Shown: one piece after another, positions 2,546 to 4,759 of the stretch
Layout of the letters: each line of letters starts with the position of its first letter
Numbering within the stretch: the stretch's first letter is position 1
NCBI GenBank assembly: GCA_027717875.1
Contig: JALLOL010000191.1
Location: 1 to 5,037, forward strand
Source: Acidobacteria bacterium AH-259-L09
GTDB lineage: Bacteria; Acidobacteriota; UBA6911; RPQK01
Direction of reading: 5' to 3'
Length of the DNA stretch: 5,037 bases
Notes under the pieces: model-generated
Told to the model about the DNA's origin: nothing
Database searches by the model: none
What the model saw: the letters and a program-made list of their open reading frames with translations, nothing else
Made by a program: the position numbers and the translations under genes

Positions 2546-4759
2546 CTACACCTCGTTGTTTCGTTTCGATACACACCGGGCAAAACGTCGCCGATCCTTA
2601 AGACGCTTGCCTGGCCTCGCCTGTGGGAGCGGACCGGTTAAAGGTGCCAGCAGTATTTCATCCTTGTCGTTAACTCGACAGCCTTCTAACACGCCCTCGA
2701 TCGCAAAACGCTTGGCGGTCTGGTAGTGAATGCCGAGCCGGGCTGCCGCCTCCGCCGGAGTCAGCCAGCCCTGTTTTCGAAGAGAGTCGCGAAGACTGTC
2801 AATGCCATACTGCCGGCGGATGGCCTTGACTGTCAATCGGGTGAACTTGTTACCTCGACCCGAGCGCAGCCACCGGGCATTTAACGTCCGGGCAATCTCA
2901 GCGTCTGTTTGTAGGGTCGCCAGAGAGCGGACCTGCTCGACGATGTCCGGCGGCGTCCGATAAAGCTCAGGAGCCGCGAGCGGTCTGGGTCGCTCCAGCT
3001 CGGTCGTGGCACCGCCCTTCCAGCGAATCGCTATGCGAATGGTCGACTGCTCTCGCACCAGGGTCACATCTTCAATCAGGAGACGAAGCATGCGCTTGCG
3101 ATCGCGAGCGGACGTGCGGGGGTCGTGCCAGACTCGGGGGAGATCGGAGACCAGTGCCCTAATCTCTTCACGGGCTTCCGGATTTAACTCGCATCCCTGA
3201 CCCTTCTGATGGTTGGTGTACTCCTCTTCCAGACGTGCTAATTCGGCGAGCTTGTCGTTCCACTGCCTTTCCAAAGCATCGGCCACCAGCCGGTTCTCGG
3301 GCCGGACCAGGAGGTACTGGTGCTGGGCCAGTTCTGCGTCCTGGCGGGCTCGTTCAATCTGGGCGCGATGCAGTCGATCCAGTTCGGCTTTGCGTGCGCG
3401 AAGTTCTTCAAAGACTTCCAGGGCGACCTCCAAGGCAGCCGGCGTGACGGCCTGTAGCACCACCTCGGCCACGGCTTCATCCAGACCGGTCCCGGCGATG
3501 CGTTGACAGATCGGCCGCGCGGTTTGAATGCCCTGGCGCTGACAAACATAGTCGGGGATGGGGTGCCCTTTGCGCGTCGTGTATCGGACAGTCATACGAC
3601 GCCCGCAAATGCCGCAAAGGGCCAGCCCCTGTAACAAGGCCGCTCCCTCGCGAGGCGGACTCTTTTTTCGATCCGGACCGTACCCATTGGCATTTTCAAG
3701 CAGTTTCCGCTGATTGCTCTCGTACTGTTGCCAAGGAAGATACTCCGGATGCACATGGGGAATAAAGATCTTCCACTCCTCGCGAGGGAGCTTTCGATAA
3801 TGCACGTGACCATCCAGTCCGACTTTGCGTTGGCGGGTTCGTCCGCAGACGTAGGTTCCCGTGTAGCGAGGATTGTGCAAGATATTCAAGACGCGGTAAT
3901 GCTGCAGCTCAATCCAGACCAGTTCTCCCTTTCGGACTCCATGGGAGAGCCGGCGCGGCCAGAGGATGCCTTCCCGATGAAAGTGGCGCACCACCTGCTC
4001 GGCCGAACCAGTGCGGTGGAAGGTTTCAAACAGCAGCCGGACCGCTGCCTGCACTTGCTCGTCTGGATCCAACACCATTCGGCCGGAGCCGTCGTGAACA
4101 TACCCGATGGGGGCTCGGATCCAAAGCTCACCTCGCCGCGCCTTGTTGAGCTGTCCGCCTACCAGGCGGGCTCTCAAGATATGGAGTTCGGCTTCGCTCA
4201 TCGTCCCTTTCATGCCCAGCAGCAGCCGGTCGTTAAAATAGGCCGGATCGTACAGCCCGTCCTCATCGAGAATGAGCGTGTCCTTCTCCTCTTGGGACGG
4301 TTTTTTTTGGCGGCGCGCCAGCGCGCGATGAATCGATCGCGGGTGGACCTTCACCCCAAAGCGCCTTTCAATCGCTTCGCTGAGCATCTGACCCTCGGGA
4401 GCCGTCTCCCTCCACTCTTGGACAAAATCTAAAATCTCCTCCGTGCACTTGTGGGCTCGTTTGGGCCCGCGACGACGCGGGAGTAAGGCCGGCAGCCCTC
4501 CCTGCTCAAAGGCGCTCTCGGCTAGGTAGAAGGCTTGACGGCTCACTCCGAAAGAGGCGGAGACTTCACTGACCGGACGGCCCTCGAGCCGGCGGCGGCG
4601 CAACATCTCGTATTTGACCTGGACCCCATCGTGCGGGTCGAAAAACTCGCCCGTACGAAACGCTTCGTCTTGGATCGACTCCGGATGGCGATGCAAGGCG
4701 CCGTGCTCGCGTAAGCTCTGCATCTTTGCTGCCTGCGGAGGGGACGATTTTCGAGCCAT
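2546..4759 (-). CDS. HTH protein fused to a large serine recombinase lacking its catalytic domain
   Basis: 737 residues from ATG 4759. Residues 1-153 are a complete helix-turn-helix protein: M-A-R-K-S-S-P-P-Q, E-F-F-D-P-H-D-x-V-Q-V-K-Y-E-M-L-R, then V-S-E-V-S-A-S-F-G-V-S-R-Q-A-F-Y (63-78), R-R-R-G-P-K and H-P-R-S-I-H-R-A-L. From memory it is normally a separate gene beside a recombinase. From residue 160 (D-T-L-I-L-D-E-D-G-L-Y-D-P) it matches the recombinase family: N-D-R-L-L-L-G-M-K-G-T-M-S-E-A-E-L, recombinase domain (about 210-310), zinc ribbon C382-C385-C406-C418, coiled coil (about 443-515) and a C-terminal HTH (T-P-A-E-A-A-A-R-L-G, 667-676). The expected Y-x-R-Q-S nucleophile block and S-R-L-x-R motif, about 140-150 residues, are missing. 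It should bind DNA but not cut it. Starts upstream at 4771 or 4972 would precede the predicted transcript start. No Shine-Dalgarno is seen. Confidence 0.85.
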   Translation of the reverse strand: MARKSSPPQAAKMQSLREHGALHRHPESIQDEAFRTGEFFDPHDGVQVKYEMLRRRRLEGRPVSEVSASFGVSRQAFYLAESAFEQGGLPALLPRRRGPKRAHKCTEEILDFVQEWRETAPEGQMLSEAIERRFGVKVHPRSIHRALARRQKKPSQEEKDTLILDEDGLYDPAYFNDRLLLGMKGTMSEAELHILRARLVGGQLNKARRGELWIRAPIGYVHDGSGRMVLDPDEQVQAAVRLLFETFHRTGSAEQVVRHFHREGILWPRRLSHGVRKGELVWIELQHYRVLNILHNPRYTGTYVCGRTRQRKVGLDGHVHYRKLPREEWKIFIPHVHPEYLPWQQYESNQRKLLENANGYGPDRKKSPPREGAALLQGLALCGICGRRMTVRYTTRKGHPIPDYVCQRQGIQTARPICQRIAGTGLDEAVAEVVLQAVTPAALEVALEVFEELRARKAELDRLHRAQIERARQDAELAQHQYLLVRPENRLVADALERQWNDKLAELARLEEEYTNHQKGQGCELNPEAREEIRALVSDLPRVWHDPRTSARDRKRMLRLLIEDVTLVREQSTIRIAIRWKGGATTELERPRPLAAPELYRTPPDIVEQVRSLATLQTDAEIARTLNARWLRSGRGNKFTRLTVKAIRRQYGIDSLRDSLRKQGWLTPAEAAARLGIHYQTAKRFAIEGVLEGCRVNDKDEILLAPLTGPLPQARPGKRLKDRRRFARCVSKRNNEV
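4301..4308 (-). other. A8 slippery run at the fusion seam of the chimera
   Basis: On the coding (minus) strand the codons CAA AAA AAA at residues 151-153 form A AAA AAA in the reading phase of a classical slippery heptamer. A -1 slip here would add 12 residues and stop at TGA (4265-4263), giving an HTH-only protein of about 165 residues. A purine-rich GAGGAGAAGGA follows at 4293-4283. There is no clear downstream stem-loop, so efficient frameshifting is unproven; transcriptional slippage on A8 is also possible. Confidence 0.35.

What the first reader, a model, noticed from the sequence alone, without database searches (positions are those of the whole stretch)
2546..4759. A large serine recombinase with its catalytic domain replaced by an HTH protein
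The sequence shows one uninterrupted frame joining an HTH protein (residues 1-153) to a serine-recombinase body that begins mid-domain at D-T-L-I-L-D-E-D-G. Family knowledge (from memory): full-length members carry about 140-150 more N-terminal residues with Y-x-R-Q-S and S-R-L-x-R, and the HTH protein is a separate neighbouring gene. Inference: a deletion of roughly 0.4-0.5 kb fused the two in frame, giving a protein that should bind attachment sites and an operator yet not recombine. It might act as a repressor or dominant inhibitor of intact relatives. The long open frame and the good promoter suggest either a recent event or selection.
Basis: partly seen in the sequence, partly recalled or inferred. 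Interest (0 to 1): 0.75.

Follow-up and report, generated by a model that had tools for sequence, protein, structure and literature searches.

The report
Broken jumping gene inside another
The fused gene looks like an internally deleted copy of a mobile element that inserts itself into the catalytic-site codons of other mobile elements' transposase genes, so this copy can probably no longer jump but may still bind DNA.

Summary
One 737-codon frame (2546-4759, minus strand) joins an HTH protein (residues 1-158) to a large serine recombinase (LSR) that starts at residue 117 of its nearest relative, so the catalytic serine is gone. Relatives carry a ~3.3 kb, four-gene element: DUF5372 - HTH - ORF3 - LSR. 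The nearest relatives of the two halves (83%, 89%) are separate proteins, both listed on a 4335 bp contig. The one search for the same architecture found no other case.

The larger finding is the element's target. In 21 of 21 distinct reconstructed empty sites (25 of 66 loci had both ends recognised) and 6 of 6 held-out ones (of 12 fetched), its core falls on a Lys/Asn codon four codons before a DDE transposase's catalytic Glu (IS21, IS3, ISNCY). The window's copy sits at the matching place in an istA remnant, seen from one side. A conserved three-site operator-like array before the HTH gene is kept.

Best reading: a recently inactivated, non-autonomous copy; repressor activity is possible, unproven. 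Nine searches of an open-access library listed no description of the family.

The parts
2546..4759 (-). fused ORF, 737 aa
4286..4759 (-). HTH part, residues 1-158; nearest separate relative P0125 (161 aa, 83%)
4285..4286 (-). deletion junction: HTH codon 158 joined to the codon matching D117 of P0003
2549..4285 (-). recombinase body, residues 159-737 (end of resolvase domain, Recombinase domain, zinc ribbon, helical region, weak C-terminal HTH_17)
2546..2548 (-). TAG four codons before the end seen in P0003 (NEVQYEA); the window reads GGTGTA where most right ends have GGTGCA
2529..2552 (-). right end of the element: conserved half-site, ending in the TT core (2529-2530)
1801..2530 (+). 5' part of an IS21-family istA (NCBIfam IS21 model, 109.6 bits, below its cut-off), frame broken between about 2313 and 2349, interrupted at GRE|K, where L133's IstA reads GNE|KGKIE
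4919..4936 (-). operator-like site 1 (distal, direct), 19.1 bits
4897..4914 (-). operator-like site 2 (distal, direct, 22 bp from site 1), 10.5 bits
4763..4780 (+). operator-like site 3 (inverted), overlapping the -10 hexamer, 18.1 bits
4773..4801 (-). promoter-like site TTGTCA-17-CATAAT before the fused gene

Best explanation
The fused gene is what is left of the HTH and recombinase genes of a four-gene serine-recombinase mobile element after a ~0.65 kb internal deletion. Shown by comparison with relatives: the deletion took the last few codons of the HTH gene, all of ORF3 and the first 116 codons of the recombinase, and kept the frame. Shown for relatives: the element (~3.3 kb: DUF5372, HTH, ORF3, LSR) has conserved ends with a TT core and, in this clade, lies at the codons for the catalytic Glu motif (K/N-x-x-x-E) of DDE transposases; the window copy's right end lies at the matching place in an IS21 istA. 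Inferred: the intact LSR integrates attP into this motif as attB, which inactivates the host IS. Inferred: the fused protein cannot cut or join DNA, because it lacks the catalytic serine and arginines, so this copy is non-autonomous. Inferred: its HTH part may still bind the three operator-like sites on its own promoter and its C-terminal part may still bind att half-sites. Most likely it is a recently inactivated relic, expressed at most under its old autoregulation. A trans-acting repressor is possible but less likely.
For: Separate genes in relatives: tblastn finds the HTH upstream of the LSR in 18 of 22 loci (not in L010, L014, L020, L021), with ORF3 between where looked at. P0125 and P0003, the best hits of the two halves, are separate proteins both listed with a longest contig of 4335 bp and source lgn; that they share one contig is inferred. 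A plasmid search with a query spanning the junction gave two separate pieces in each of the 12 rows shown, of 466 records. Active site lost. Element and target: four near-identical Microvirga copies with different flanks define the ends. 21 of 21 distinct empty sites follow the rule, as do 6 of 6 held-out sites with both ends recognised, of 12 fetched. Ten of the 21 were scanned: all ten match IS21, IS3 or ISNCY models, six above the curated cut-off, the four IS3-type fragments below it. The motif Glu aligns with E233 of IS5376 IstA, catalytic with D124 and D187 in PMC10122671 (passages seen). The window's istA pieces align with L133's IstA (37% and 25% identity). No decay: the body departs at 6 of 232 strongly conserved columns, P0003 at 6 of 234 (range 0-13 in 41 relatives).
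Against: The contig is the only copy of the junction (1 member sequence, 1 contig), so an assembly error cannot be excluded, although no exact repeat of 20 bp or more lies in the window and no shared word longer than 8 bp was found within 80 bp of the breakpoints in three relatives. The left end of the element is outside the contig, so the window's insertion is read from one side only and DUF5372 was not seen. The lack of decay in the body fits selection as well as it fits a recent event.
Confidence: 0.8

Rival explanations
1. The fusion is a working trans-acting repressor: the HTH part keeps the three operator sites of this and other copies shut, and the dead recombinase part occupies att sites or forms mixed, inactive oligomers with intact recombinases, giving immunity to further insertions.
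For: Open frame of 737 codons with a promoter-like site; all three operator-like sites kept although the window was not used to train the motif; the body is as conserved as in its nearest intact relative; the HTH pair and parts of the C-terminal half are predicted to fold. Two other in-frame HTH-LSR fusions of different make are listed, P0122 and P0124.
Against: No second copy of this architecture in the one search made (4 proteins of 852 candidates, one of them the window itself, none of the others alike). A random join keeps the frame one time in three. P0122 and P0124 read by eye like frameshift and deletion products with other breakpoints.
Confidence: 0.13
2. The junction is an assembly artefact that joins pieces of one or two element copies.
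For: Single contig of exactly 5037 bp; relatives are multi-copy elements that break assemblies (contigs L001 and L003 are about element length).
Against: Both halves have their nearest relative on a contig of the same length and source; no long repeat at the junction.
Confidence: 0.06
3. This length and start are normal for an active recombinase of its kind.
For: None found.
Against: Of the 119 relatives listed besides the window's own entry (the best of 7978 matches), 118 carry PF00239; P0036 does not, its sequence beginning mid-domain on a 1933 bp contig.
Confidence: 0.01

Closest known systems
Large serine recombinases (phiC31, Bxb1, LI integrase, YokA/SprA class)
   Same: Recombinase and zinc-ribbon domains; the best solved matches by sequence (P0003) and by Foldseek E-value are serine integrases. 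Intact relatives have the catalytic domain; two-base TT core at the ends.
   Different: The window protein lacks the catalytic serine and arginines and carries an HTH protein in front. TM-scores of the fold matches are low (0.09-0.18 by query length for the 19 below E 0.001), so only parts match. The element is ~3.3 kb and targets transposase motif codons.
DUF5372 / Y4bD-Y4pK gene clusters of rhizobial and other plasmids (as annotated)
   Same: Same gene order in Sinorhizobium fredii NGR234 pNGR234a, Aromatoleum plasmid 2, Rhodococcus pLPS8, Bradyrhizobium pCC829_3; the first gene is called Y4bD/Y4pK family in MesoLjLa3.
   Different: ORF3 and the recombinase's N-terminus are deleted here; DUF5372 would lie beyond the contig end.
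Multi-targeting LSRs (Durrant et al. 2022, PMC10083194; 12 of 31 passages seen)
   Same: One LSR cluster, many target genes, conserved TT dinucleotide.
   Different: That clade is marked by DUF4368, which was not among the Pfam matches of P0003. Here the targets are one protein motif of other mobile elements. I did not see the supplements, so they may have listed such LSRs.
Tn5 Inh and P-element KP (recalled, no call)
   Same: Truncated or internally deleted mobile-element proteins can inhibit the full enzyme in trans.
   Different: No inhibition was tested here; the fusion to a neighbouring HTH gene is different.

Membership tests
Large serine recombinase | N-terminal resolvase catalytic domain with the active serine | tested here: not met
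   Only the last third of PF00239, below cut-off; P0003 has it
Large serine recombinase | Recombinase domain PF07508 and zinc ribbon PF13408 | tested here: met
   E 4.5e-14 and 2.2e-07
Large serine recombinase | Recombination activity | not testable with these tools
   needs bench work
DUF5372-HTH-ORF3-LSR element | Gene order with ORF3 between HTH and LSR | tested here: not met
   ORF3 deleted; junction joins HTH to LSR directly
DUF5372-HTH-ORF3-LSR element | DUF5372 gene at the left end | tested here: inconclusive
   contig ends at 5037, before the left end
DUF5372-HTH-ORF3-LSR element | Right-end half-site with TT core 16 nt past GGTGYA | tested here: met
   2529-2552; GGTGTA where most have GGTGCA
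DUF5372-HTH-ORF3-LSR element | Core at the K/N codon four before the catalytic Glu of a DDE transposase | tested here: inconclusive
   right flank fits (GRE|K in istA, aligned with L133); the Glu side is not in the contig
DUF5372-HTH-ORF3-LSR element | Two direct sites ~23 bp apart and one inverted site on the HTH promoter | tested here: met
   held-out window scores 19.1, 10.5, 18.1 bits (plus a fourth hit of 8.5); full array in 29 of 33 regions including the window; shuffled control 0.045 sites per region
Trans-dominant inhibitor (Tn5 Inh type) | Inhibits the intact enzyme in trans | not testable with these tools

The most novel reading that the evidence does not exclude
A large family of LSR transposons lives by parasitising other mobile elements: each clade uses, as its attB, the codons of an active-site motif in another element's enzyme (DDE transposases, group II intron reverse transcriptase, IS66 TnpB/TnpC, IstB, a tyrosine recombinase). 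The window's fusion is a deletion-born repressor of this family that combines the operator-binding HTH with an att-binding dead recombinase and gives its replicon immunity to further insertions.
Probability: 0.12. Interest if true: 0.85.

Novelty: new variant of a known kind. Interest (0 to 1): 0.6.

Why it matters
The fusion on its own is an inactivated copy and of modest interest. The element it comes from matters more: a widespread serine-recombinase element (P0008 matches 1165 places in 522 plasmid records by tblastn, diverged relatives included) whose target is a motif that a DDE transposase needs. If right, it would explain how a site-specific element finds new sites in very different genomes with little harm to the host, since it disables selfish DNA. 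It supplies natural attB/attP pairs for a two-base-core integrase and makes two questions testable: how an LSR reads a degenerate codon motif, and whether such elements hold IS numbers down.

Tried and rejected
Assembly chimera: looked for repeats and microhomology, found none long enough. Normal short recombinase: rejected from the 120 homologues listed of 7978. A second fused family: the HTH-region search, limited to proteins of about the fused length, gave 4 proteins: the window's own entry, P0122 (resolvase present, frame-shifted middle), P0123 (HTH with an rve transposase) and P0124 (recombinase from about residue 80); the descriptions of P0122 and P0124 are by eye. Viral contigs: 4 stretches matched a pattern, none a relative. 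Rfam: nothing at gathering threshold in window, L001 or L010. dN/dS was not run: the closest relative's DNA is not held. L010 (Cupriavidus) first looked like a second deletion at residue 118, but its front part reads by eye like a group II intron reverse transcriptase, so an intron insertion or rearrangement is more likely. Structure: the model's low confidence in the resolvase remnant is not specific, because residues 1-40, 297-341 and 356-370 are also mostly below 50. Not used in the end analysis: 10 of the 22 loci (L010, L012, L014, L016-L022), dropped by eye because the element is cut, masked, frame-broken or rearranged. The choice of reading frame matters: when the longest frame across the joined site was taken, the opposite strand won in 10 of 25; one search fixed the strand and the frame that starts at the core AA. 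Literature: nine searches; none of the listed titles or abstract openings describes this family, and no paper of the library holds DUF5372. Most subscription journals and all preprints are outside the library, so this is not proof of absence in print.

Full report
What is in the window. The window appears to be a whole contig: the database entry for this protein, P0002, lists one contig, of 5037 bp. No genome is held for it. On the minus strand, 2546-4759 is one open frame of 737 codons. Residues 48-147 match HTH_28, HTH_29, HTH_23 and (below cut-off) HTH_32; residues 235-356 match Recombinase PF07508; residues 375-434 match the recombinase zinc ribbon. Only positions 98-144 of the 145-position resolvase model are matched, below its cut-off.

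Comparison with relatives. The recombinase half is 89% identical to P0003, a 697-residue protein with a full resolvase domain, and the alignment starts at its D117. YVRQS (residues 19-23 of P0003) and SRLAR (96-100) are therefore absent; that these are the catalytic motifs is recalled family knowledge. Among the 119 relatives listed besides the window's own entry, the best of 7978, 118 carry PF00239 and P0036 does not. The HTH half is 83% identical to P0125, a separate protein of 161 residues, and runs to within about three residues of its end. P0003 and P0125 are both listed with a longest contig of 4335 bp and source lgn, so they probably lie side by side; this is inferred from the matching length, not seen.

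The parent element. Relatives in genomes and plasmids show four genes in a row: a DUF5372 gene (PF17342, E 1.1e-21 for L001), the HTH gene, a small ORF3 (98 codons in L001, no Pfam match up to E 0.1), and the recombinase. tblastn finds the HTH upstream in 18 of the 22 loci. Measured on L001, L130 and L002 the window lacks about 651, 659 and 635 bp. Four copies in one Microvirga genome (99.88-100% over 3329-3345 bp in four of the pairs aligned; the pair L006-L008 aligns at 96.6% over 3788 bp, into flanks that are alike too) have different flanks and fix the ends. Both ends carry a TT core. Most right ends have GGTGCA 16 nt before the core; most left ends have a CAACT-like word 12 nt after it.

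Target. The end rules use element letters only, but I had already looked at many of these flanks when I wrote them. Both ends were recognised in 25 of 66 loci, some of them the same place fetched twice, giving 21 distinct empty sites once the flanks were joined. In all 21 the AA of the core begins a Lys or Asn codon and a Glu stands four codons on, inside an open frame of 89 to 565 codons (the flanks were cut at 900 bp). Strand and frame were fixed; the plain longest frame lay on the other strand in 10 of 25. The sites are not all independent, since some lie in related genomes. Ten of the 21 were scanned against NCBIfam: all ten match IS21 (5), IS3 or IS2 (4) or ISNCY (1) transposase models; the four IS3-type fragments fall below the curated cut-off. 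One IS21 fragment matches the solved IstA of IS5376 and aligns the Glu with E233, which PMC10122671 names as catalytic with D124 and D187 (12 of 24 passages seen). Twelve further plasmid copies were then fetched and the rules applied unchanged: both ends were recognised in 6 of 12, and 6 of 6 follow the rule at new sites, although some of these hosts overlap with the first set. In the window the right end abuts an istA remnant at GRE|K. The IstA closest to it by blastx among the 21, L133 (37% and 25% identity in two frames), reads GNE|KGKIE at its site; the match of the two sites is by eye. The Glu side of the window's site lies outside the contig.

Other clades. For the 41 loci where the ends were not both recognised, I read right flanks by eye: 6 were too short, 27 of 35 looked like an enzyme of another mobile element (three of the Cupriavidus flanks are alike, and the flank of L144 is IS630-like but not at an evident motif), and 8 were not recognised. 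Ten were scanned against Pfam: 8 had a match (RVT_1, TnpB_IS66, IS66 transposase twice, rve_3, IstB; and rve at E 0.0027 and Phage_integrase at E 0.00048, both below the curated cut-offs), 2 had none. This wider claim is weaker than the DDE rule.

Regulation. Between DUF5372 and HTH, 29 of 33 regions (window included) carry two direct 18 bp sites 22-23 bp apart and an inverted copy nearer the HTH start; L007, L147, L150 and L151 do not. The control of 330 single-base shuffles gives 0.045 sites per region at the same threshold. The 32 other regions trained the motif, so only the window is an independent test: it scores 19.1, 10.5 and 18.1 bits, plus a weak fourth hit of 8.5. The inverted window site (4763-4780) overlaps the -10 of the promoter-like site. 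That the HTH protein binds these sites is an inference from position and from the conserved array.

Is the fusion alive? Against 41 relatives below 90% identity to each other, the window body departs at 6 of 232 columns that are at least 95% conserved; P0003 departs at 6 of 234, and the range is 0-13. So the body shows no decay, which fits a recent deletion and fits selection equally. The structure model is weak (mean pLDDT 68.6, pTM 0.37): the HTH pair and much of the C-terminal half are modelled with fair confidence, and the ten-residue means over residues 161-220, the resolvase remnant and what follows it, are 27-40, but residues 1-40, 297-341 and 356-370 are also mostly below 50. The best fold matches by E-value are serine integrases, with low TM-scores. 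Two small defects were seen: a TAG four codons before the usual end, and a frame break in istA. No second copy of the architecture was found in the one search made, and a junction-spanning query split into two pieces in each of the 12 rows shown, of 466 plasmid records.

Conclusion. The fusion is best read as a deletion product of an integrated serine-recombinase element, catalytically dead and probably recent. A repressor role cannot be excluded and is now better defined, because the operator-like sites are kept. The element family's choice of target is the more surprising result and deserves a census. Nine literature searches listed no description of it, within the limits of an open-access library.

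Noticed in passing
window 812-1572, minus strand: A DUF5615/PIN-like protein (812-1156) next to a small protein with weak ribbon-helix-helix and DUF433 matches (1156-1572): looks like a toxin-antitoxin pair.
   Followed up: no
L010:3236-5722 (Cupriavidus necator UYPR2.512 plasmid): 828-codon frame joining what reads by eye like part of a group II intron reverse transcriptase to a recombinase from about residue 118: another N-terminal loss at nearly the same residue.
   Followed up: partly
L149 and L190:3593-6061 (Mesorhizobium huakuii 583 plasmids): Recombinase gene annotated as WP_183465351.1 on two plasmids, 2469 bp long and starting where the HTH gene ends: ORF3 appears fused to the intact recombinase.
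   Followed up: no
L056-L060, L063, L067, L086, L137, L145 right flanks: More distant clades of the recombinase sit in group II intron reverse transcriptase, IS66 TnpB and TnpC, IstB (at its GPT nucleotide-binding motif, by eye) and a tyrosine recombinase (weak match).
   Followed up: partly
   Followed up: partly
right ends of close relatives (L001, L003, L131, L133): The conserved C-terminal peptide EVQYEA overlaps the right-end recombination half-site, so the end of the recombinase gene doubles as a DNA site.
   Followed up: no
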